A stretch of DNA of 37,521 bases, taken from assembly GCA_027886925.1 (NCBI GenBank), contig JAPCJN010000005.1:1-37521 (forward strand), written 5' to 3'. The notes under the pieces were generated by a model. That model searched no databases. It had not been told where the DNA came from and saw only the letters and a list, made by a program, of their open reading frames with translations. Source of the stretch: Nitrososphaerota archaeon (GTDB lineage Archaea > Thermoproteota > Nitrososphaeria > Nitrososphaerales > UBA183). This document shows positions 25,217 to 34,669 of the stretch, one piece after another; within the stretch, counting starts at the first letter, position 1, and the number at the start of each line of letters is the position of its first letter. The translations under genes were made by a program, and so were the position numbers.

Positions 25217-26131
25217 TTAATCGTTGTGTGTTTTCCGCCTATCCCTCAAAAGTGAGCTGATGAAGAACTCCCCCGCCTTGTAACTCGACCTGACGAGCGG
25301 GCCCGAGGCCACATACCTGAACCCGAACTCGTTTTCGCCGACGTCCTTGAAATGCTCGAACGTCGCAGGGGCGACGTATTCTGCGACTGGGAGGTGTCGC
25401 GCCGACGGGCGCAGGTACTGCCCGATGGTAAGGAAGTCCACTCCCGCGTCCCTGAGGTGCATCATCGCGAGGCGCACCTCCTCTTCCTTCTCGCCCAGCC
25501 CGAGCATTATCGACGATTTCGTGAACATCTTTCCGTCGAGCTTCTTGATGCTCCTAAGAACTGAGAGCGACTGCCAGTAGCCCGCCCTCGGGTCCCTGAC
25601 TCTGTCCGTTAGGAATAGGGTGGTCTCGATGTTGTGCGCGATGACGTCGGGCCCGGCTTCCACGACCGTCCTGATCGCGTCGACGTCGTTTTGAAAGTCA
25701 GGGATGAGCACCTCGACGAGCATCTCGGGGTTCATCTCCTTCGTCGCCCTGATCGTCCGAGCAAAGTGCGCAGCGCCCCCGTCGGGCAGCTCGTCCCTGT
25801 CGACGGAGGTAAGGACGACGTAGGAGAGCGACATCTTCGAGAGTGTCAGCGCGACGTTCTCCGGCTCTAGCGGGTCAAGCCCTCCCGAAGGCCTCCCCGG
25901 GGTGACCATGCAGAACCTGCAGGCCCTTGAGCAGACGTCGCCCATGAGCATGAGCGTGGCAGTCCCCCCGCCCCAGCACTCGGCGACGTTCGGGCAGTGG
26001 GCCTCTTCGCAGACCGTGTGGAGCCCCACCTGGGAGAAAAGCCCCTTGAGCCTGCGGTAGTTCTCGCCCTCGTCTGTCGTTCCAGAGGAGGAGGGCGGGA
26101 CCACCGTGAGCCATTGCGGCTTGGGTTCCAT
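25217..26131 (-). CDS. lipA: Lipoyl synthase
   Basis: The 304-residue radical SAM enzyme inserts two sulphurs into octanoyl groups on lipoyl domains. Both iron-sulphur clusters are visible: the auxiliary cluster cysteines in CEEAHCPNVAEC (Cys41, 46, 52) and the radical SAM motif CSRACRFC (Cys67, 71, 74). The C-terminal RSSYKAGEF carries the serine that ligates the auxiliary cluster. The ATG at 26131 follows directly after an in-frame TTG. It sits between the HTH regulator (62 bp upstream) and the dehydrogenase genes whose E2 it modifies; lipB is at 36154 on the other strand. Confidence 0.97.
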   Translation of the reverse strand: MEPKPQWLTVVPPSSSGTTDEGENYRRLKGLFSQVGLHTVCEEAHCPNVAECWGGGTATLMLMGDVCSRACRFCMVTPGRPSGGLDPLEPENVALTLSKMSLSYVVLTSVDRDELPDGGAAHFARTIRATKEMNPEMLVEVLIPDFQNDVDAIRTVVEAGPDVIAHNIETTLFLTDRVRDPRAGYWQSLSVLRSIKKLDGKMFTKSSIMLGLGEKEEEVRLAMMHLRDAGVDFLTIGQYLRPSARHLPVAEYVAPATFEHFKDVGENEFGFRYVASGPLVRSSYKAGEFFISSLLRDRRKTHND

Positions 26132-26193
26132 CAAAGAAATCCAGATACCACCCTCGCGAGAGGACGCTATTAGCTTAGCCGGAGTTAAGAAGG

Positions 26194-26616
26194 TCAGGCC
26201 GTGGTCTTGAGCTTTATCGTCCCGCTATCGGGATGAAGGCTGCCGAGGCACGCATAGCACCCCTCCGTCTTGAACCCGGGCTCGAGCTCCTCGTGCAGGC
26301 TGCAGAGGACGTGGTTATACCTGACGTAGTCGCAGACCTCGGTCATCAGGCGGAGCGCCTCCCTCTGGTCCGGGGCGTCCGCGGCGAGCACCATCGCGAC
26401 GTTGTCGGCGGCACTCGCGATGTTCTTGTCGACCTCGAGGTCGAGCATCATCCCCCTCGCCTTGCGCGCGTAGTTGCTGACGGAAGCTTGGGTCACCCCT
26501 AGCCTTGACGCGACCTCCTGCTGGGTCATGTTGTAGTTGTCGGTGAGCCGTTTCGAGACCATGGCCCTGAATGCCGGGAGCGCCGACTTTGACACTATCT
26601 CGTAGGGGTGGATCAA
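26194..26616 (-). CDS. HTH transcriptional regulator with C-terminal cysteines
   Basis: The 140-residue protein has an XRE/sigma-like helix-turn-helix (NMTQQEVASRLGVTQASVSNYARKA, about residues 29-53), a helical middle, and a C-terminal part with four cysteines (CDYVRYNHVLC, then GCYACLGS) that could bind a metal or an iron-sulphur cluster. It resembles archaeal predicted regulators of the COG2522 type. The TTG start at 26616 is about 28 bp from a TATA palindrome, consistent with a leaderless mRNA. It lies 62 bp upstream of lipA in the same direction, so it may control lipoate synthesis or the dehydrogenase operon; no operator is proven. Confidence 0.85.
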   Translation of the reverse strand: MIHPYEIVSKSALPAFRAMVSKRLTDNYNMTQQEVASRLGVTQASVSNYARKARGMMLDLEVDKNIASAADNVAMVLAADAPDQREALRLMTEVCDYVRYNHVLCSLHEELEPGFKTEGCYACLGSLHPDSGTIKLKTTA

Positions 26617-26640
26617 CTACTAAGGATATTAAGCCGTTAT

Positions 26641-26648
26641 ACTTAAGT
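26641..26648. promoter_or_regulatory. Palindromic bidirectional TATA element (ACTTAAGT)
   Basis: The palindrome's centre is 28.5 bp from the regulator's TTG (26616, minus strand) and 28.5 bp from the ATG at 26673 (plus strand). Such symmetry suggests one TATA core serving two leaderless transcripts, and it would let the regulator control both. Confidence 0.5.
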
Positions 26649-26672
26649 CTGATTTCAGGGCGTTTCTTGCGG

Positions 26673-26795
26673 ATGGACTACGATTCCGCCAACATTCTCC
26701 AGAACCTGGAAGAAATTGCCAGAGATCGACGGAGTCCGCGCGATGACCTAGGGCCAGCCGGGGCCTCTTCTCGTGGACAATCAATCAATGCTTAA
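26673..26795 (+). CDS. Possible small protein, 40 aa
   Basis: This short reading frame begins MDYDSANILQNLEEIARDRR and ends in a polar Gly/Ser-rich stretch. Support is limited to the exact promoter spacing (TATA palindrome centre 28.5 bp upstream) and a plausible amphipathic helix at the start. Nothing is known about its function. It lies between the divergent HTH regulator and the ilvB leader; its TAA overlaps the leader's TATA box. It could equally be an untranslated stretch. Confidence 0.3.
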   Translation: MDYDSANILQNLEEIARDRRSPRDDLGPAGASSRGQSINA

Positions 26796-26800
26796 ATAAG
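26791..26800 (+). promoter_or_regulatory. TATA box of the ilvB leader transcript
   Basis: CTTAAATAAG is centred about 27 bp before the ATG of the leader ORF (26822), the exact spacing for a leaderless archaeal mRNA. Confidence 0.6.
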
Positions 26801-26821
26801 AGCAAGGGGTCGTGCTGCCTG

Positions 26822-26905
26822 ATGCAACGCATCAGCAACGGCGGTTCGAGTGTTCAGTTCTCCTCGCTCGACAACGTAACGGTTGCGTTGTTAGTTTTAG
26901 TCTAG
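26822..26905 (+). CDS. Putative branched-chain amino acid leader peptide upstream of ilvB
   Basis: A 27-codon ORF starts at ATG 26822 and ends at TAG 26903-26905, 70 bp before ilvB. It begins MQRISNGGSS and its last nine residues are VTVALLVLV, so seven of the last nine are valine or leucine, the end products of the downstream operon. The last five codons before the stop are TTG TTA GTT TTA GTC; TTA appears rare in the G+C-rich neighbouring genes. A TATA box sits at leaderless distance. The codon run overlaps an 8-bp hairpin and precedes a repeat arrangement able to form alternative stems. These are the marks of ribosome-mediated attenuation leaders such as those of bacterial ilv and leu operons; such control is inferred here. 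Chance is possible for so short a frame. Confidence 0.6.
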   Translation: MQRISNGGSSVQFSSLDNVTVALLVLV

Positions 26906-26937
26906 AGCCTCGCTCAGGCGTTTTGCATATGCGAGGC
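26862..26937 (+). promoter_or_regulatory. Alternative hairpin region between leader peptide and ilvB
   Basis: Three elements are seen. An 8-bp stem (26871-26878 with 26884-26891, one G-T pair, 5-nt loop) covers the Val/Thr/Ala/Leu codons. A 7-bp stem GCCTCGC (26907-26913) pairs with GCGAGGC (26931-26937). A second copy of CCTCGCTC at 26862-26869 could pair with the same GCGAGG. The two CCTCGC copies therefore compete for one partner, as in attenuators. No long T run follows the second stem. A TATA-like CATTATAG (26940-26947) and GGTGA (26962-26966) lie between it and the ilvB ATG, so ilvB may also have its own promoter. Confidence 0.5.
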
Positions 26938-26975
26938 AACATTATAGATGGTTACAATTCTGGTGAATCCATAGA

Positions 26976-28700
26976 ATGACAGAAAAGATGTCCGGTGCTC
27001 GGGCCACAGTGGAGGCCCTCGAGAGGGAGAAGGTGGACTACATCTTCGGCATGCCAGGCGGCGCGAACCTCCCGTTCTACGACGCCCTCTGGGATTCTAA
27101 GATAAAGCACGTGCTGGTCCGACACGAGCAGCTGGCCGCCCACATGGCCGATGCCTACGGCAGAGTGTCGAGGAAGGCGGGGGTGTGCTCCGCGACCTCC
27201 GGGCCCGGGGCCACCAACCTCATCACCGGGATCGCGACCGCGTTCGCCGACTCCTCCCCGGTCGTGGCGATCACCGGCCAGGTGGCGAAGGCGATGACCG
27301 GAAGGAACGCCTTCCAGGAGACCGACATCGTCGGTATCGCCACCCCTGTGACGAAATACACCCTGCAGCCGCTTTCCGCCGCCGAGGTTCCTTTCGCGGT
27401 AAAGCGCGCCTTCTACATCGCCACCACCGGAAGACCGGGCCCCGTCCTTCTGGACCTGCCCAAAGACGTCCAGCAGGAGGAGGCGGAGATGATCTTCCCC
27501 GACAGCGTCGAGGTGAGGGCATACAGGTCGAACGTCCCCGTCGACGCGCAGGACATCGAGCGGGCCGCCGAGATGATGGTCTCGGCGGAGAGGCCGATCC
27601 TCTGGGGCGGAGGCGGGGTCAGGATCGCGGACGCCGCTCGGCCGTTCACCGCCCTCGCGGAGTTGCTCATGATGCCGGTGATCACGACACTGCAGGGCAA
27701 GGGAGACTTCCCCGAGAACCATCCCCTGTCTCTAGGCCCGATCGGGATGCACGGCCGAGCGGAAGCCAACAAGCTGGTCTCCGAGTGCGACCTCTTGGTC
27801 GCCGTGGGCGTCAGGTTCTCCGACCGCTCGACCGGGAACTTCGGCGAGTTCGCCCCTGGCGCCAAGATAATCCACATCGACGCAGACCCGACGGAATTCA
27901 ACAAGAACAAGATGGTGGACCTCTCGATACTCGGCGACGCCAACCAGGTCCTCACTACGCTCTTCGATGCGGTGGCGAGGCGACTGACGAGGACAAGGGA
28001 CGCCGGCGCAAACCCGTGGCTGAAGCGGGTCAACGGCGTGCGCGAGGAGCTCGCGGGAATCCCCGCCTACAGGGACTCCTACGCGGAGCTTTCGGGGCCG
28101 AAGATAGTCAAGATGATGAGGGACATCCTCCCGCCCGAGGCGATACTCACCACCGGCGTGGGGAGGCACCAGATGTGGTGCGAGATTCACTATAGGGTGC
28201 TGAGGCCGAGGACGTGGATAACGTCGACCGGCCTAGGGACGATGGGCTTCGGGCTGCCCGCCGCGGTAGGGGCGAAGTTCGCGGAGCCAGACGTGCCCGT
28301 CGTGGACTTCGATGGTGATGGAAGCTTCGTGATGACGGAGCAGGCCCTTGCCACGGCCGTCGAGGAGGGGCTTCCCATCATATCGGTGATAATCAACGAC
28401 AGGAGCCTCGGGATGGTCGAACAGTGGCAGAGGCTCATGTACAACCGGCGCTACATCGGGATCAAGTTCCCCAACGTGCCGGACTTTGTGAAACTCGCGG
28501 AGGCCTATGGGGCGCACGGCCGCACGGTGGGCTCGCTCGAGGAGTTCGGCAAGGCCCTGCGAGAAGGGCTGGCCAACGAAGGGCCGACCGTCATCGAGGT
28601 CCCGGTCTCGCCGGAAGAGGACGTCTTCCCGTTCTTGCCTCCAGGCAAGGGCATCAAGGACACGGTCTACGGTTCTCCGAAGGAGATGGCCATCTTTTGA
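26976..28700 (+). CDS. ilvB: Acetolactate synthase large (catalytic) subunit
   Basis: The 574-residue thiamine-diphosphate enzyme condenses two pyruvates to acetolactate or pyruvate with 2-oxobutyrate, the first step of branched-chain amino acid synthesis. The catalytic glutamate is in VRHEQLAAHMADAYGR (Glu51). SGPGATNLITGIATAF and GRNAFQETDIVG follow, then a FAD-type middle domain, and the cofactor motif GDGSFVMTEQALATAVEEGLP with IINDRSLGMVEQWQ near residue 450-485. It heads the ilvB-ilvH-leuACDB-ilvE operon. GGTGA precedes the ATG by 9 nt, so translation from a leadered mRNA reading through the leader region is possible. Confidence 0.97.
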   Translation: MTEKMSGARATVEALEREKVDYIFGMPGGANLPFYDALWDSKIKHVLVRHEQLAAHMADAYGRVSRKAGVCSATSGPGATNLITGIATAFADSSPVVAITGQVAKAMTGRNAFQETDIVGIATPVTKYTLQPLSAAEVPFAVKRAFYIATTGRPGPVLLDLPKDVQQEEAEMIFPDSVEVRAYRSNVPVDAQDIERAAEMMVSAERPILWGGGGVRIADAARPFTALAELLMMPVITTLQGKGDFPENHPLSLGPIGMHGRAEANKLVSECDLLVAVGVRFSDRSTGNFGEFAPGAKIIHIDADPTEFNKNKMVDLSILGDANQVLTTLFDAVARRLTRTRDAGANPWLKRVNGVREELAGIPAYRDSYAELSGPKIVKMMRDILPPEAILTTGVGRHQMWCEIHYRVLRPRTWITSTGLGTMGFGLPAAVGAKFAEPDVPVVDFDGDGSFVMTEQALATAVEEGLPIISVIINDRSLGMVEQWQRLMYNRRYIGIKFPNVPDFVKLAEAYGAHGRTVGSLEEFGKALREGLANEGPTVIEVPVSPEEDVFPFLPPGKGIKDTVYGSPKEMAIF

Positions 28701-29185
28701 CCAGATCGCAGAGGGTCCTCTCGACGCTGGTCGAGAACAAGCCCGGCACGCTGTTCCGCGTCGTCCACCTGGTCCGGCTGATGCGCCTCAACGTCGAGGG
28801 GCTCACCCTCGGTGTCACAAACGGGGGGGCGGACTGCCGGATGACCATGACCCTCAGCGGAGACGACGCCGCGATTGAGCACGTCGCGAAGCAGCTCATG
28901 AAGGTCATAGACATCCTCGAGGCGCACACCTACGGCCCTGAGGAGGTCACGGCTAGGGAGCTCGCCCTCGTCAAGATAAGCACCGACAAGATCTCGGTCG
29001 CGGAGATCCAGAAGAATACGAGCTGCAGGATCGTCGACTCCTCCCCCCACTCCGTCGTGGCGGAGATAGTGGGGTCGGCCGACGAGATCGACCAGTTCGT
29101 GCAGAGGCTGGGAACGTCAAACGTCCTCGACATCGCGAGGACTGGTGTCGCCGCGCTCCCGAAGGAGAGGCTGTCGTCGCGATGA
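28697..29185 (+). CDS. ilvH: Acetolactate synthase small (regulatory) subunit
   Basis: The 162-residue protein has an N-terminal ACT domain (VLSTLVENKPGTLFRVVHLVRLMRLNVEGLTLG) and the C-terminal ALS_ss domain (REL-ALVKIST to VLDIARTGVAALPK). It binds valine in homologues and stimulates and inhibits the catalytic subunit. It starts at a TTG that overlaps the ilvB stop (TTGA), and its own stop overlaps the leuA ATG (ATGA), so the three genes are translationally coupled. Length matches the usual 160-170 residues. Confidence 0.95.
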   Translation: MTRSQRVLSTLVENKPGTLFRVVHLVRLMRLNVEGLTLGVTNGGADCRMTMTLSGDDAAIEHVAKQLMKVIDILEAHTYGPEEVTARELALVKISTDKISVAEIQKNTSCRIVDSSPHSVVAEIVGSADEIDQFVQRLGTSNVLDIARTGVAALPKERLSSR

Positions 29186-30744
29186 CGAGCATCGACAGGA
29201 CGATCCGTGTCCTGGACACCACCCTTCGAGACGGGGAGCAGACTCCCGGCGTCTCGCTGACCCCCGACGAGAAACTCGAGATAGCGGAGGCGCTGGACAA
29301 GCTCGGGGTCGACGTCATCGAAGCCGGTTTTCCGATCACCTCGAAAGGCGAGCAGGAAGGGGTCAGGAGGATAGCGAAGGCCGGCCTGAAGGCAGAGGTC
29401 TCGGGCCTCGCGAGGGCGGAGAAGGTCGACATCGACACAGCCATCAACTGCGGCGTCAACGGCGTCCACGTCTTCCTCGCGTCCTCTGACATCCACCTCC
29501 AGCACAAGCTCCACCTTACCAGGGAGCAGATGATCAAGCAGTCCGTCGAGTCGGTGCAATACGCGAAGAGCTTCGGCGTGAAGGTGGAGTTCTCCGCCGA
29601 GGACGCGACCAGGACCGAGATCCCGTTCTTCCAGCAGGTGGTGAAGGCCGTCTCCGAGGCAGGGATAGACAGGTTCGACATACCCGACACGGTGGGCGTG
29701 GCGACGCCCCAGAGGATGGCGGAATACGTCCAGGCCGCGCGCTCGGTCTCTGACGTGATGATCGCAGTCCACTGCCACAACGACTACGGACTGGCGGTCG
29801 CCAACAGCCTCGCGGGCGTCGCCGCGGGAGCACAGCAGGCGCACGTCACCATCAACGGCATCGGCGAGAGGTCCGGGAACACGTCGCTCGAAGAGTTCGT
29901 CATGGGGTGCTTCAACCTCTACGGCCTGAAGACGAAGATCAACTACTCTCTGCTTTACGAGACCTCGCGCCTCGTCTCCAGGCTCACGGGCGTCGTGATC
30001 CAGCCGAACAAGGCCATCATAGGCGACAACGCTTTCGGGCACGAGTCTGGCATCCATACGCACGGCGTCCTGAGCAACCCCTCGACCTACGAGCCGTTCG
30101 ACCCGTCCATGGTTGGAAGGACGAGGTGGCTCCAGGCGGGCAAGCACGCAGGGAGGCACGGCATCGCCTACCAGCTCCGTGGGATGGGGCTGAAACCCAA
30201 GGAAGACAGCCTCAGGCTCATCGTCGAGAAGGTCAAGGAGATGGGCGACCAAGGGCGCAACACCACCGACAGCGACCTCTACCAGCTCGCGGTCCAGATC
30301 ATGGGCGGAGGCAAGGCTGAGAGCCACGACATCGTCGAGCTCGAGGGGCTCGAGGTCGTCACCGGGATAAAGCGCCTGCCGAGCGCCACGGTGAAGCTGC
30401 TGGTCAGGGGCCAGCTCCACGAGGCGACCGACGTCGGCTCCGGCCCCGTGGACGCGGCGTTCAACGCCGTCCAGAAGATATTCAGCACCATAGACATCGT
30501 GAGGCTGAAGGAATACCGGCTAGAGGCGCTTACGGGCGACTCGCAGGCGGTCGCCGACGTCTCCGTCAAGGTCGAAGACGAATCAGGTCTCGCCGCATCC
30601 GGGAGAGGCATGAAGCGAGACATAGTGGTGGCCAGCGTCGAGGCGATCGTGAGCGGGATAAACGCGCTCATGGCGAAGAAACTGGAGGCCCAGCCGTCGA
30701 AGGACATCACGCCTTCAGGCGAGAAGCCGATAGAAGGGGTCTAG
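29182..30744 (+). CDS. leuA: 2-isopropylmalate synthase (or citramalate synthase)
   Basis: The 520-residue enzyme has the HMGL-like TIM barrel with [18 protein letters not shown] at the N terminus, the metal-binding [16 protein letters not shown] and [16 protein letters not shown] motifs, and [15 protein letters not shown]. The C-terminal part (from about residue 400, [19 protein letters not shown]) is the LeuA allosteric domain where leucine binds in homologues. It should condense acetyl-CoA with 2-oxoisovalerate, the first leucine-specific step. In archaea the same family includes citramalate synthase (CimA), which uses pyruvate; the operon with leuCDB fits either, and I cannot separate them by eye. 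Confidence 0.9.
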
Positions 30745-30761
30745 GGCAGGCTGGGAGACGA

Positions 30762-32090
30762 ATGGCAGGCGCAACGATAACCGAAAAGATAGTCTCGCGC
30801 GCGATGGGTCGGAAGGTGAAGGCCGGAGACCTCATCGAGGCGCTCCCCGTCGACAAGCTCTACTTCAACGAAGTGATAGGGCCGCCGGCCATCCTGAACT
30901 TCGAGAAGGACTTCGCCGACGTCTACACCGAGTCGGGCAAGAAGCTCCAGGTCTTCAACCCGTCGCGGATCGCGTTCATGCCAGACCACACCGTCCCATC
31001 CTGCTCCATCATGGTCAGCCAGGGCATCCGCCTGATGTCAGACTTTGCAAAGGACCAGGGGATCGCCATGTACAAGGAGGGAGACGGGATAGAGCACACC
31101 ATCGCCTCCGAGGAGGCGTTCGTCCTCCCTGGAGAGATCGCGGTCGCGACCGACTCCCACACGTGCACCCAGGGCGCCCTGGGAGCTCTGGCGTTCGGCA
31201 TCGGGACCACCGAGGGAGAGAACCTGCTTGCGACGGGCGAGCTGTACTCGTTCACGGTGCCGCAGACCATAAGGTTCGAGGTCGGCGGCAAGTTCCAGAG
31301 GGGCGTCTACGCCAAGGACCTCGTGCTCCACGTCCTGGGGGTGATGGGCGAGGGCGGGGCCTCGAAGCACGTCGCGGAATACACGGGGCCCACCATCGAT
31401 TCCTTGGACATGGAAGGAAGGTTCACGATATGCAACCTCTCCGTCGAGATGAGCGCGAGGACGGCCATAATGAACCCCGACGACAGGACGCTGGCCTACG
31501 TGACGGAGGCGCTCGCCCGCAGACGGATGGAAATGACCGACGAGATGAGCAGGATGGCCGCGCGGAGCGACGCGGATGCGAGCTACGCGAGGGTGGTCAG
31601 GGTCGACGCCTCCACAATCGAGCCGACGGTGTCGATGCCTCACTCTCCCGCCAACGCGAAGCCGGTCAGCCAGGTCGACGACCCGATCACGTCCGTGTTC
31701 CTCGGCTCTTGCGCCAACGCGCGCGAATCCGACCTCACGATAGCGGCGAAGATACTGAAGGGGAGGAAGGTCCACCCGCAGACCAACCTGCTGGTCATCC
31801 CAGCGAGCAGGCGGGTCTACAACTGGGCGATGGACAACGGCCTGCTCAAGATATTCGCAGACGCAGGCGCCAACATCGAGTCCTCGAACTGCGGCCCGTG
31901 CTTCGGAAAGCACATGGGCATACTCGCGCCGGGCGACAGGTGCCTGAGCACGAGCAACCGCAACTACAAGGGGAGGATGGGCTCGGCCGAGGCTTTCATC
32001 TACCTGGGGTCGCCTGCCGTAGCCGCTGCCACTGCGATAGAGGGGAGGGTAGCCGACCCGAGGAAGTACCTGCCGGCGGGTGACAACTGA
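30762..32090 (+). CDS. leuC: 3-isopropylmalate dehydratase large subunit
   Basis: The 442-residue aconitase-family protein carries the iron-sulphur ligands: one cysteine in FLGSCANARESD and two in SNCGPCFGKHMG. It also has the N-terminal ITEKIVSRAMGRKVKAGDLI and ATDSHTCTQGALGALAFGIGTTE segments. With LeuD it isomerises 2-isopropylmalate to 3-isopropylmalate. The size and sequence are of the archaeal LeuC/homoaconitase type, which can also act on citramalate-derived substrates. The gene starts 17 bp after leuA and abuts leuD. Confidence 0.95.
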   Translation: MAGATITEKIVSRAMGRKVKAGDLIEALPVDKLYFNEVIGPPAILNFEKDFADVYTESGKKLQVFNPSRIAFMPDHTVPSCSIMVSQGIRLMSDFAKDQGIAMYKEGDGIEHTIASEEAFVLPGEIAVATDSHTCTQGALGALAFGIGTTEGENLLATGELYSFTVPQTIRFEVGGKFQRGVYAKDLVLHVLGVMGEGGASKHVAEYTGPTIDSLDMEGRFTICNLSVEMSARTAIMNPDDRTLAYVTEALARRRMEMTDEMSRMAARSDADASYARVVRVDASTIEPTVSMPHSPANAKPVSQVDDPITSVFLGSCANARESDLTIAAKILKGRKVHPQTNLLVIPASRRVYNWAMDNGLLKIFADAGANIESSNCGPCFGKHMGILAPGDRCLSTSNRNYKGRMGSAEAFIYLGSPAVAAATAIEGRVADPRKYLPAGDN

Positions 32091-32624
32091 GTGCAGATGA
32101 GGGGGAAGGTGGCCAAGAAGTTCGGTGACGACATCAACACCGATTACATCATCCCCGCCTTCCTTCTTCAGGAGAGCTGGGACAAGCAGTTCTTCGCCGA
32201 CCACGCCTTCGAGAGCTTCAACCCCTCGTTCCGTGCCGACTGCAGGGCGAACAAAGAGAGCGTCGTCGTCGCGACGAACAACTTCGGCTGCGGGAGCTCT
32301 AGGGAGCAGGCCGTGTATGCGATAAAGTACAACAACGTGGTCGCGGTCGTCGCCCAGAGCTTCCCCGACATATTCTACCGCAACTGCCTCAACAACGGGT
32401 TGCTCCCGATCCAGATAAGCGACACTGCAGAGATCGGGCTCGGCGACGAGCTGGTCATAGACCTCGACGCACGGCTTGTGAAGGACGTGACGAACGGGCT
32501 CGAGTTCTCGATCGTGGCGACCGAAGCGGCGATAGAGCAGATGAAGAAAGGAGGGTTCCTCGGCCTCGTCAGGGAGAGGCTCCGGCAGAAGCTAAAAGCA
32601 CAGCCTCATGGGACCTCGTCCTAG
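32091..32624 (+). CDS. leuD: 3-isopropylmalate dehydratase small subunit
   Basis: The 177-residue swivel-domain subunit has KKFGDDINTDYIIPAF at the N terminus and NNFGCGSSREQAVYAIKYN, whose GCGSSREQA loop shapes substrate recognition, followed by VVAQSFPDIFYRNCLNNGLLPI. It completes the isomerase with LeuC. The GTG at 32091 directly follows the leuC stop; an in-frame ATG at 32097 is an alternative start. It lies 18 bp before leuB. Confidence 0.95.
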   Translation: MQMRGKVAKKFGDDINTDYIIPAFLLQESWDKQFFADHAFESFNPSFRADCRANKESVVVATNNFGCGSSREQAVYAIKYNNVVAVVAQSFPDIFYRNCLNNGLLPIQISDTAEIGLGDELVIDLDARLVKDVTNGLEFSIVATEAAIEQMKKGGFLGLVRERLRQKLKAQPHGTSS

Positions 32625-32642
32625 AGGGCTGACGAAGAAAGG

Positions 32643-33677
32643 TTGACGCAGCAGAAGCATTACACGATCTCCCTGATAAGGGGAGATGGAGTAGGGCCTG
32701 AGATCTCCGAGGCCGCCCTGCTCGTCCTCGAGGCCCTTCAGGAGAAGTCAAGGCTCAGGTTTACGATCAAGGACTCGCCCGCGGGCGACACATGCAATGA
32801 GAAGACGGGCGTCCCTCTCCCGGAGTCGTCGCTGAAAACGATAAGGGCTTCCGACGCCTGCCTCAAGGCTCCCGTGGGGGAGACGGCGGCCGACGTGGTG
32901 GTAAGGCTCCGTCAGACGCTCGACCTCTACGCGAACATAAGGCCGGCGAAGAGCCTCCCAAACGTCCCTTCGTTGAAACCCGGGATCGACATGGTCATAG
33001 TCAGGGAGAACACCGAAGACCTCTACAAAGGGCAGGAGTTCGAGTTCGACGGGGGTGTGGTAGCCCTCCGGACGATCACGCGGCGCGCCTCGGAGAGGAT
33101 CGCGACACGCGCGTTCGAGCTGGCCGAGCAGAGAGGGGGCAGGAAGAAGGTGGTCGCCGTCCACAAGTCGAACGTCCTCAGGAAGAGCGACGGTCTGTTC
33201 GCGAAAGCCTGCAAAGAAGTCTCCAAAAACTATCCCGAGGTCTCGTTCAGCGAAATGCTCGTGGACGCGGCCGCGATGAACCTGCTGCGAGACCCGCTGT
33301 CGTTCGACGTGCTTGTCACCACCAACCTCTATGGGGACATCCTTTCAGACGAGGCAGCCCAGCTCGTCGGAGGCCTGGGGGTGGCTCCCTCCGCCAATGT
33401 CGGCGAGACGTTCGCGATCTTCGAGCCGGTCCACGGCTCGGCTCCTGACATCGCGGGCAAAGGAAGGGCGAACCCCGTTGCGATGATCCTCACGACCGCG
33501 ATGGCACTGGAGTGGCTGGCCGCGACAAGGAACGACAGAGACTGCGCGGCTGGCGCCTCCGAGACCAGGAAGGCGGTGAACCAGGTCCTAAGGACGAGCC
33601 GAAGGACGCCAGACCTGGGAGGCAAGGCCACGACGATGCAGGTCGCGCAGGCTGTCGCGCAGGCGATAAGTAAATAG
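32643..33677 (+). CDS. leuB: 3-isopropylmalate dehydrogenase (isocitrate/isopropylmalate DH family)
   Basis: The 344-residue oxidative decarboxylase has the N-terminal IRGDGVGPEIS, the substrate loop VRENTEDLYKGQEF, the catalytic KSNVLRKSDGLF lysine, LVTTNLYGDILSDEAAQLVGGLG with metal-binding aspartates, and FEPVHGSAPDIAGKGRANPVA. It converts 3-isopropylmalate to 2-oxoisocaproate. The family also includes homoisocitrate and isocitrate dehydrogenases, but the leuACD context supports the leucine step. The start is a TTG preceded by GAAAGG. The next gene is 38 bp away. Confidence 0.92.
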   Translation: MTQQKHYTISLIRGDGVGPEISEAALLVLEALQEKSRLRFTIKDSPAGDTCNEKTGVPLPESSLKTIRASDACLKAPVGETAADVVVRLRQTLDLYANIRPAKSLPNVPSLKPGIDMVIVRENTEDLYKGQEFEFDGGVVALRTITRRASERIATRAFELAEQRGGRKKVVAVHKSNVLRKSDGLFAKACKEVSKNYPEVSFSEMLVDAAAMNLLRDPLSFDVLVTTNLYGDILSDEAAQLVGGLGVAPSANVGETFAIFEPVHGSAPDIAGKGRANPVAMILTTAMALEWLAATRNDRDCAAGASETRKAVNQVLRTSRRTPDLGGKATTMQVAQAVAQAISK

Positions 33678-33715
33678 CCAACCGAAGGTAATTGGGTGCC
33701 TTCCAGGAGATAGGG

Positions 33716-34669
33716 ATGCAACCCACCAAGAAGATCTGGTTCAACGGGGAGTTCGTGCCCTGGGACGAGGCGAAGGTCCACGTCCTTACGCACGGCCTCC
33801 ACTACGGGTACTCGATCTTCGAGGGAATCAGGTGCAACTCGACCCCAAAGGGTCCCGCGATCTTCCGGCTCAGGGAACACATCAAGCGCCTCATCGGCGG
33901 GACAAAGGCCTACAGGATGCAGCTCCCATACACGGAGGACGAACTGGTCCACGGCTGCCTCGAGCTGGTAAGGGAAAACGGCCTCAACGACTGCTACGTC
34001 CGACCTATCGTCTTCAGCTCCTACGGGGAGATGGGAGTGAACCCGCTCAAGAACAAGATAATCGGGGCCATCGCGGCCTGGGAGTGGGGCTCGTACCTCG
34101 GAGACGAGGGGATGGAGAAGGGGATCAGGTGCACCGTCTCGAGCTGGTCGAGGATCGACCCGCGGACCCTCCCGCCGCACGCAAAATGCTCCGCGAACTA
34201 CGCGAACTCTATCCTCGCAAAGATGGACGCGCTCTCTGGCGGGTTCGACGAGGCCATATTGCTCACGACGAACGGCCTCGTGGCAGAGGGCTCTGGGGAG
34301 AACATCTTCAGGGTAAAGGACGGTGTCCTCACGACGCCGACAAAGTCGGCCGGAGTCCTCGAGGGCATAACGAGAGACTCTGTGATCCAGATAGCAAAGG
34401 ACAACGGCATCCCGTTCAAAGAGGAGGACTTTATCCGCGAGGACATGTTCACTGCTGACGAGCTCTTCATGTGCGGCACCGCGGCTAACGTGACCCCGAT
34501 AAGGGAGGTCGACAACAGGATGATAGGGAACGGAAAGTTCCCGACCACCAGCAAGATCCAAAAGACCTACTTGGACGCGATACACGGCAGGATCGCAAAG
34601 TACGAGCCTTGGCTGTCTTACACCACCCTGCCCACGATCTACAACGCACCGGCTTCTGAGAACGCATAG
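33716..34669 (+). CDS. ilvE: Branched-chain amino acid aminotransferase
   Basis: The 317-residue fold-type IV PLP enzyme carries out the last step of valine, leucine and isoleucine synthesis with glutamate as amino donor. Recognisable parts are VHVLTHGLHYGYSIFEGIRC, YVRPIVFSSYGEMGVNP, the PLP lysine in PPHAKCSANYANSI, GLVAEGSGENIF and ELFMCGTAANVTPIREVD. I chose the ATG at 33716 because AGGAG lies 6 nt upstream and the residues of the longer frame (from 33692) add nothing family-like. It closes the operon; lpd has its own promoter 68 bp later. Confidence 0.95.
   Translation: MQPTKKIWFNGEFVPWDEAKVHVLTHGLHYGYSIFEGIRCNSTPKGPAIFRLREHIKRLIGGTKAYRMQLPYTEDELVHGCLELVRENGLNDCYVRPIVFSSYGEMGVNPLKNKIIGAIAAWEWGSYLGDEGMEKGIRCTVSSWSRIDPRTLPPHAKCSANYANSILAKMDALSGGFDEAILLTTNGLVAEGSGENIFRVKDGVLTTPTKSAGVLEGITRDSVIQIAKDNGIPFKEEDFIREDMFTADELFMCGTAANVTPIREVDNRMIGNGKFPTTSKIQKTYLDAIHGRIAKYEPWLSYTTLPTIYNAPASENA

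What the first reader, a model, noticed from the sequence alone, without database searches (positions are those of the whole stretch)
26791..26976. Attenuation-type leader peptide (ending VTVALLVLV) upstream of an archaeal ilvB-leu operon
Seen: a TATA box centred 27 bp before an ATG, a 27-codon ORF whose last nine residues contain four valines and three leucines, two TTA codons among the last five codons, a hairpin over the regulatory codons, and two copies of CCTCGCTC (26862, 26908) that compete for one GCGAGG (26931). Known: bacterial ilv and leu operons use Val/Leu/Ile-rich leader peptides whose translation selects between RNA structures. Inference: the operon for valine and leucine synthesis is controlled by ribosome stalling on its own end-product codons. 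I know of no well-established archaeal example, and transcription-translation coupling in archaea makes it possible. A competing reading is that ilvB has its own TATA box (26940-26947) and the repeats are protein operators.
Basis: partly seen in the sequence, partly recalled or inferred. Interest (0 to 1): 0.92.

Follow-up and report, generated by a model that had tools for sequence, protein, structure and literature searches.

The report
Archaeal leucine/valine leader-peptide attenuator (ilvB)
In front of the genes for making valine and leucine, this group of archaea carries a tiny gene packed with leucine and valine codons followed by an RNA hairpin, which suggests that they sense their own amino-acid supply through a stalling ribosome, a trick known from bacteria.

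Summary
A short ORF ending in a Leu/Val run, directly behind a TATA box, precedes ilvB in 75 of 94 loci of the window's class. Controls: antisense 6/94, ilvC/ilvD 1/47, trpE/hisG 2/46, leuS 1/26, Sulfolobales-like ilvB 1/26. Between lineages the peptides differ, but the Leu/Val content and position persist. Pooled pN/pS is 0.63 in frame, 1.07 and 1.02 out of frame. A perfect TATA precedes the leader in 44-51 of 76-78 loci and ilvB in 2 of 78, which argues against a separate ilvB promoter.

The RNA part is only partly right: the competing repeats are not conserved, nor is any alternative pairing. What recurs is one hairpin right after the leader stop (29/54 loci against 97/2700 shuffles) and, more weakly, one inside the ORF. 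The window has no U-tract terminator.

I read it as a Leu/Val-sensing ribosome-mediated attenuator built unlike the bacterial ones. The sensor is well supported; switch direction and output are inferred. Ten paper searches listed no archaeal example.

The parts
26791..26797 (+). TATA box CTTAAAT, centre 28 nt before the leader ATG
   Evidence: Perfect match to YTTAWAW (motif recalled) 22-38 nt before the leader start in 51 of 78 leader loci, where the start was chosen partly by TATA; 44 of 76 for the 5'-most and 47 of 76 for the 3'-most ATG. Before ilvB 2 of 78.
26822..26905 (+). Leader ORF MQRISNGGSSVQFSSLDNVTVALLVLV, probably leaderless
   Evidence: Same kind of ORF in 75 of 94 ilvB loci of the class. 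Pooled pN/pS 0.63 in frame against 1.07 and 1.02 in the other two frames. SD-like string before the leader in 10 of 78, before ilvB in 53 of 78.
26882..26902 (+). Regulatory codons GTT GCG TTG TTA GTT TTA GTC, with TTA and GTT rare in ten long window ORFs
   Evidence: Ile/Leu/Val frequency is 0.81-0.94 at codons -2 to -5 from the stop in 54 long-spacer loci.
26824..26831 (+). 5' arm of hairpin H1 (GCAACGCA), just after the AUG
   Evidence: -8.5 kcal/mol, p=0.11 against codon-order shuffles for the window alone; 17 of 77 loci have p<=0.05 (about 4 expected).
26884..26891 (+). 3' arm of hairpin H1 (TGCGTTGT), over the regulatory codons
26907..26913 (+). 5' arm of hairpin H2 (GCCTCGC), one base after the stop codon
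   Evidence: Stem of -8 kcal/mol or better starting +1 to +5 after the stop in 29 of 54 long-spacer loci against 97 of 2700 shuffles.
26931..26937 (+). 3' arm of hairpin H2 (GCGAGGC), purine-rich
   Evidence: The stem sequence differs between lineages (e.g. TCCTCGC/GCGAGGA, AGCCCACAA/TTGTGGGCT, CACCCC/GGGGTG).
26962..26966 (+). Shine-Dalgarno-like GGTGA of ilvB
26976..28700 (+). ilvB, acetolactate synthase large subunit, first gene of the ilvBN-leuACDB-ilvE cluster (26976-34669)
   Evidence: TIGR00118, 685 bits.

Best explanation
This is a ribosome-mediated leader-peptide attenuator that senses charged leucyl- and valyl-tRNA. Transcription starts at or a few bases before AUG 26822, so the ribosome loads on a leaderless mRNA and translates 27 codons (inferred from TATA spacing and the lack of a Shine-Dalgarno). 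With Leu and Val plentiful, it runs to the stop and is released; hairpin H2, which begins one base after the stop, then forms and lowers expression of ilvB-leu. With Leu or Val short, the ribosome dwells on the Leu/Val codons just before the stop and masks the 5' arm of H2, so H2 does not form and the operon is expressed. H1, formed by the start of the ORF and the regulatory codons, may hold RNA polymerase until the ribosome arrives. Shown here: the ORF, its Leu/Val bias, its frame-specific constraint, its position behind the promoter, and H2 in the long-spacer loci. Inferred: the stall, the sign of the switch, and the output. I favour a transcriptional output (loss of coupling and FttA-type termination, or pausing; about 60%) over a translational or RNA-stability one.
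For: Leader in 75/94 ilvB loci of the class against antisense 6/94, ilvC/D 1/47, trpE/hisG 2/46, Sulfolobales-like ilvB 1/26, shuffles 335/4700, leuS 1/26. Also in 3 of 5 further ilvB loci outside the class (L007, L067, L068; not L013, L069); these three are the genomes with an IlvB match at E<=1e-150 among 10 in the order of the Marsarchaeota locus, two of them with 99% identical IlvB. Peptides differ between lineages (VALLVLV, LALIILD, IASLLLLILA, IILIVLGLLVVLV, ILLLVELVL, HVLVLLRVA), which fits codon sensing better than a fixed arrest peptide. Leu 294 and Val 156 of the 499 Ile/Leu/Val codons, Ile only 49; in shuffled ORFs passing the same filter Ile is 931 of 3154. TATA before the leader 44-51 of 76-78 against 2/78 before ilvB; SD 10/78 against 53/78. 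Pooled pN/pS 0.63 in frame. H2 29/54 against 97/2700; mean fold z -1.51 against -0.15 for upstream control stretches, z below -1 in 47 against 13 of 78. H1 17/77 at p<=0.05.
Against: No expression, ribosome or transcript-end data. 19 of 94 loci fail the criterion. In 4 of the 12 clades pN exceeds pS. No conserved antiterminator-like alternative, no U-tract after H2 in the window, and folding does not predict that the ribosome's position changes access to the ilvB SD in the 54 long-spacer loci (0.45, 0.47, 0.49), so the output step rests on position alone. In the 24 short-spacer loci no stem after the stop was found in 15 and none better than -5.2 kcal/mol in the other 9. The F+M share among NTN codons is only modestly low (20 of 519 against 231 of 3385 in shuffled ORFs picked by the same score). 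In Streptomyces coelicolor, changing such codons upstream of ilvB had no effect on regulation (PMC1262725, passages).
Confidence: 0.7

Rival explanations
1. Classical two-state attenuator as in E. coli leu/ilv: the stalled ribosome lets an antiterminator form that excludes a terminator hairpin.
For: Leader ORF and the post-stop hairpin are there. In the Marsarchaeota locus L007 the ORF segment GGGCTA could pair with the TAGCCC that spans the stop codon (read by eye). The window's two CCTCGCTC copies could in principle compete.
Against: Across 36 loci the H2 5' arm shows no excess pairing with the ORF (mean z -0.14) and the 3' arm none with downstream sequence (0.27). No U-tract after H2 in the window. 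The duplicated CCTCGCTC is not kept letter for letter in the nearest relatives, though G-U pairing remains possible.
Confidence: 0.12
2. Translational control: ribosome position on the leader opens or closes the ilvB ribosome-binding site, or terminating ribosomes reinitiate at ilvB.
For: In the 24 short-spacer loci (leader stop 16-38 nt before the ilvB match) predicted SD access rises from 0.37 without a ribosome to 0.54 with one at the stop.
Against: In 54 long-spacer loci the predicted SD access barely changes (0.45, 0.47, 0.49). Coupling by reinitiation is little or none beyond 30 nt in tested Haloferax and E. coli gene pairs (review PMC12548453, passages); the window's spacer is 70 nt. 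Reinitiation would also raise ilvB in replete cells, the wrong sign.
Confidence: 0.2
3. The short ORF makes a nascent peptide that is arrested by its sequence, or a small functional hydrophobic protein.
For: In-frame constraint.
Against: No peptide motif that I could see shared between lineages beyond Ile/Leu/Val content; hydrophobic run of about 8-10 residues, too short for a usual membrane span (recalled); N-terminal halves look unrelated between lineages (by eye).
Confidence: 0.06
4. ilvB has its own promoter at 26940-26947 and the repeats are protein operators; the ORF is chance.
For: The window has CATTATAG at 26940, scoring 4-5 of 7 against the TATA consensus; L014 has CTATAG nearby. A divergent HTH gene lies at 26194-26616.
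Against: Perfect TATA before any candidate ilvB start in 2 of 78 loci, against 44-51 of 76-78 before the leader; best TATA score 22-38 nt before ilvB is 5, 3, 4 and 4 of 7 in the window, L001, L010 and L014; the ORF is conserved as coding sequence.
Confidence: 0.03

Closest known systems
Corynebacterium glutamicum ilvBNC attenuator (leader peptide MTIIRLVVVTARRLP)
   Same: Short leader peptide with Ile/Leu/Val codons upstream of ilvB; transcription start one nucleotide from the leader start codon, i.e. no ribosome-binding site; hairpins downstream (PMC11857589, abstract and passages).
   Different: There, three competing hairpins with a proven terminator and a 292-bp leader region. Here, leader start to ilvB is 154 nt, with one clearly recurrent hairpin abutting the stop, no U-tract in the window and no conserved competitor; archaeal TATA promoter.
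Enterobacterial ilvL/leuL transcription attenuators
   Same: Leader ORF rich in end-product codons, rare codons included, in front of the cognate operon (family features recalled).
   Different: No conserved antiterminator/terminator pair, leaderless instead of SD-led leader, and archaeal transcription, which does not use hairpin-dependent intrinsic terminators of the bacterial kind (recalled).
Actinobacterial ilvB leader peptides and the LEU element of leuA
   Same: ORFs with runs of Ile/Val/Leu codons upstream of ilvB (PMC1262725, passages).
   Different: There the codons overlap terminator hairpins followed by poly-U, or (LEU element) pair with the leuA SD. Neither is seen in the window.
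Archaeal polarity, likely by FttA
   Same: Would give a way for a leader ribosome to affect downstream transcription (PMC12548453, passages).
   Different: A general response to untranslated RNA, not an amino-acid-specific leader.

Membership tests
Ribosome-mediated leader-peptide attenuation | Short ORF with clustered codons of the pathway's end products upstream of the cognate operon | tested here: met
   75/94 against antisense 6/94, ilvC/D 1/47, trpE/hisG 2/46; operon makes Val and Leu; Leu and Val dominate.
Ribosome-mediated leader-peptide attenuation | Leader ORF under coding constraint | tested here: met
   Pooled pN/pS 0.63 in frame, 1.07 and 1.02 in the shifted frames; 12 clades, of which 4 alone have pN above pS.
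Ribosome-mediated leader-peptide attenuation | RNA structure placed so that ribosome position on the leader decides its formation | tested here: met
   H2 starts +1 to +5 after the stop in 29/54 long-spacer loci, the window among them, against 97/2700 shuffles. Not met in the 24 short-spacer loci. That the ribosome decides its formation is inferred.
Ribosome-mediated leader-peptide attenuation | Ribosome occupancy and derepression on starvation for the cognate amino acids | not testable with these tools
   No RNA or ribosome data.
Classical bacterial transcription attenuator | Mutually exclusive antiterminator and terminator stems | tested here: not met
   Mean z of alternative pairings -0.14, 0.27 and 0.17 in 36 loci. 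Not excluded for single loci such as L007 or the window.
Classical bacterial transcription attenuator | Terminator hairpin followed by a U-tract | tested here: not met
   Window H2 is followed by AACATTATAG. Relatives were read by eye, not counted; T4-5 follows a small stem over the stop codon in several short-spacer loci there.
Translational attenuator masking the SD | Hairpin sequesters the downstream SD, freed by ribosome position | tested here: inconclusive
   No clear change in the 54 long-spacer loci, modest change in the 24 short-spacer loci, by folding only.
Known Rfam leader or riboswitch family | Match to a covariance model | tested here: not met
   0 matches at E<=5 in window 26100-27300.

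The most novel reading that the evidence does not exclude
An archaeal class (Nitrososphaeria, which by recall includes the ammonia oxidisers), together with Marsarchaeota relatives, controls branched-chain amino-acid synthesis by a leaderless leader peptide whose ribosome directly blocks or permits one hairpin abutting its stop codon. It needs neither an antiterminator nor a U-tract terminator: a single-hairpin, coupling-dependent archaeal attenuator that was present early in the class.
Probability: 0.5. Interest if true: 0.92.

Novelty: new variant of a known kind. Interest (0 to 1): 0.85.

Why it matters
Leader-peptide attenuation is a textbook bacterial mechanism. None of the titles and abstract starts listed by my ten paper searches describes an archaeal amino-acid leader peptide; the lists (10 of 12; 12 of 1,567) were capped, and the library lacks most subscription journals. 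A class-wide archaeal example would show that ribosome position on a leader is used there for specific regulation, would assign a function to a short ORF in genomes of the group to which the ammonia oxidisers belong (recalled), and offers a ready test of how archaeal ribosomes act on transcription or RNA folding.

Tried and rejected
Second promoter for ilvB: disfavoured, perfect TATA 2/78. Duplicated CCTCGCTC as competing arms: not kept in the nearest relatives. General pairing alternatives to H2: no excess in 36 loci. SD masking: no clear effect in 54 long-spacer loci, modest in 24 short-spacer loci. Rfam: no match. Leaders on sister genes: ilvC/ilvD 1/47, leuS 1/26, that one a 58-residue ORF scoring 6, trpE/hisG 2/46 with the Leu/Val score. 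Trp leaders: 8 of 22 trpE loci had an upstream ORF with two Trp, none with three, and no Trp run; two of them (L167, L173) share GWSLLGS in a frame that overlaps the trpE start. Not pursued. Wider spread: 59 usable of 60 further loci of the phylum, classes not told, gave 9 at >=5 against 2 antisense, with a few strong ones (L299, L306, L308). A MAFFT alignment of the post-stop region of ten loci misplaced several stems and was not used for counts.

Errors and biases of mine: read minus-strand loci from the genome search without turning them; the analyses were repeated turned. In some searches the leader start was chosen partly by TATA; one search repeats the TATA count with starts chosen without it. 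The start position +1 is partly a boundary effect of the search, which began at +1. The structural and TATA counts are on the 75 class leaders plus L007, L067 and L068 (78), which were selected by the Leu/Val score.

Rows dropped: L012 (contig ends 56 nt before ilvB), L323 (contig end), L174 (contig end, trpE), the partial or weak ilvC rows (L226, L232-L238), the two partial ilvD rows (L264, L265), the second hisG fragments (L203-L208), one partial leuS row (L298). Of 309 class genomes with a match I examined 89; the last 20 of those and the 60 I picked by hand from the lists, before seeing their upstream DNA.
Full report
What was checked. The leader ORF, TATA box, repeats and downstream ilvB are where the finding puts them. 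The downstream genes are ilvB, ilvN, leuA, leuC, leuD, leuB and ilvE by NCBIfam, so the products are valine and leucine (and isoleucine through shared enzymes). No whole genome is held for the window. The nearest named relatives of its IlvB are metagenome-assembled archaea, most labelled Thaumarchaeota (L010 90%, L014 87%, L001 86%, and Candidatus Gagatemarchaeum L002 81%).

Conservation of the ORF. I scored every short ORF (9-60 codons, ATG/GTG/TTG) ending 15-90 nt before the ilvB match by the number of Ile/Leu/Val in its last nine codons. At a score of 5 or more: 75 of 94 ilvB loci of the class; antisense of the same DNA 6 of 94; ilvC and ilvD of the same genomes 1 of 47; trpE and hisG 2 of 46; 26 ilvB loci that I take for Sulfolobales (recalled) 1 of 26; shuffles 335 of 4700; leuS 1 of 26. 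At 6 or more: 57 of 94, against antisense 1, ilvC/D 0, trpE/hisG 0, Sulfolobales-like 0, 73 of 4700 shuffles, and leuS 1. The 94 are the window, 89 of the 309 class genomes with a match, and four loci (L003, L006, L009, L015) whose genomes were not in that draw. Nineteen loci miss the threshold. Some of these carry ORFs at the same place with weaker tails (e.g. L098, L101, L131); others show nothing obvious.

What is conserved is composition, not sequence. Examples: VALLVLV (window), LALIILD (L003), IASLLLLILA (L005), IILIVLGLLVVLV (L007, Marsarchaeota), AASLILVIILLL (L046), VVLLILTVLPLVVLL (L056), HVLVLLRVA (L096), ILLLVELVL (L146). The last nine codons of 78 leaders (the 75 plus L007, L067, L068) hold Leu 294, Val 156 and Ile 49 of 702. 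Pooled over 12 clades, pN/pS is 0.63 in the ORF frame and 1.07 and 1.02 in the two others; in 4 of the 12 clades alone pN is above pS. This is modest, as expected if only codon class matters.

Promoter and initiation. A perfect YTTAWAW match lies 22-38 nt before the leader start in 51 of 78 loci and before the ilvB start in 2 of 78; an SD-like string precedes the leader in 10 of 78 and ilvB in 53 of 78. Because I had chosen leader starts partly by TATA, I repeated the count without that: 44 of 76 for the 5'-most in-frame ATG, 47 of 76 for the 3'-most with at least 15 codons, and still 2 of 78 before any candidate ilvB start. With TATA centres at 27-31 or 33-37 nt in 66 of the 74 loci scoring 6 or 7, and archaeal start sites about 25 nt downstream of TATA (recalled), the leader mRNA is leaderless or has a 5' end of a few bases.

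RNA structure. A stem of -8 kcal/mol or better whose 5' arm starts at +1 to +5 after the leader stop is found in 29 of 54 long-spacer loci against 97 of 2700 shuffles. The mean fold z of the post-stop stretch over all 78 is -1.51, against -0.15 for upstream control stretches. Its letters change between lineages while the pairing stays. In 46 of 62 loci with any stem the 5' arm is the more pyrimidine-rich one, in 12 the less, an asymmetry that I cannot explain. In the 24 short-spacer loci there is no stem in 15 and none better than -5.2 kcal/mol in 9; several could instead form a small stem over the last Leu codon and the stop (GCTGTAA..ACAGC, by eye). A second hairpin, pairing the start of the ORF with the regulatory codons, beats codon-order shuffles at p<=0.05 in 17 of 77 loci, very strongly in some (L007, L064), but only at p=0.11 in the window. 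In 36 loci with a stem no alternative partner for H2 shows excess pairing, and the long-spacer loci show no clear predicted change of SD access with ribosome position.

Mechanism. Codon composition without peptide conservation, rare codons in the window (TTA 3/371, GTT 3/354 in ten long ORFs), and a hairpin abutting the stop are what one expects if ribosome speed on Leu/Val codons sets whether H2 forms. Ile/Leu/Val frequency is highest at codons -2 to -5 (0.81-0.94) and stays above 0.6 to codon -8 in long-spacer loci, so a stall at the last few codons would reach the H2 arm (ribosome footprint recalled), while a stall further upstream would not; hence I favour 'stall masks H2, operon on', but only narrowly. 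The opposite wiring (stall upstream lets H2 form) is not excluded. Whether H2 acts on transcription, translation or RNA decay is open. Translational reinitiation is disfavoured by the 70-nt spacer (PMC12548453 passages) and by sign. That review calls FttA the likely cause of polarity in archaea, which offers a route from uncoupled leader RNA to termination.

Spread. In the order of the Marsarchaeota locus, 3 of 10 genomes have an IlvB match at E<=1e-150 and all three carry a leader; two of them are 99% identical in IlvB. Two further loci outside the class (L013, L069) do not. Among 59 usable loci from further members of the phylum 9 reach the score against 2 antisense, with a few convincing ones (L299, L306, L308). 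The element is thus typical of the window's class and sporadic elsewhere in the sample.

Known relatives. The nearest in anatomy is the C. glutamicum ilvBNC attenuator, also with a leader that starts one nucleotide from the transcription start, where replacing three valines by alanine abolishes valine-dependent expression (PMC11857589, abstract and passages, citing earlier work). Actinobacterial ilvB leaders were predicted with poly-U terminators, but in S. coelicolor codon changes had no effect (PMC1262725, passages), which is a caution for this case. None of the entries listed by ten searches describes an archaeal amino-acid leader peptide (titles and abstract starts seen, two lists capped). 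A hit on a methanogen valine paper proved to name the Corynebacterium leader-peptide work only in its reference list (PMC13158618, passages).

Noticed in passing
L181-L183, L188-L190, L192, L194, L198, L202 (about 64-190 nt upstream of the hisG match): Before hisG a conserved short reading frame, often with a GTG start...(M/L)xGDx(L/V)Hx(S/G)W..., e.g. MEQLEGDSLHGHWSWFSSSVASLVHA in L192. Here the peptide sequence itself is conserved, with one to three His, unlike the ilvB leader; 10 of the 24 hisG loci examined show it well, and L180, L186, L197 and L200 hold looser matches.
   Followed up: partly
Sulfolobales-like ilvB loci (12 of L070-L095 printed), roughly 70-135 nt upstream of ilvB: A conserved element, roughly ATGATNGGTGNNTNYNYCCTCCAAGT, readable in most as a short ORF M(I/V/A/M)G(E/D/G)xx(L)Q(V/I); it holds both an SD-like GGTG(A/G) and a CCTCC. 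No Leu/Val run.
   Followed up: no
26194-26616 (-) and L003, L015 upstream regions: A divergent HTH gene (HTH_ParB/HTH_3 matches) lies next to the ilvB promoter; its start region and a stretch CCGTTATAYTTAAGTCT recur in L003 and L015 (by eye). It could be a regulator of this operon or merely a neighbour.
   Followed up: no
H2 arms in 62 loci: The 5' arm of the post-stop stem is the more pyrimidine-rich one in 46 of 62 loci and the less in 12; a plain hairpin would not need this orientation. The purine arm resembles an SD.
   Followed up: no
L326, L327, L332 (about 80-125 nt before ilvB): Short similar ORFs (MVKLLHLEVLVKI, MVKLLHLEVLERT, MLELLQLWVLEGT) in genomes that were not in the first class sample, possibly a related leader.
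   Followed up: no
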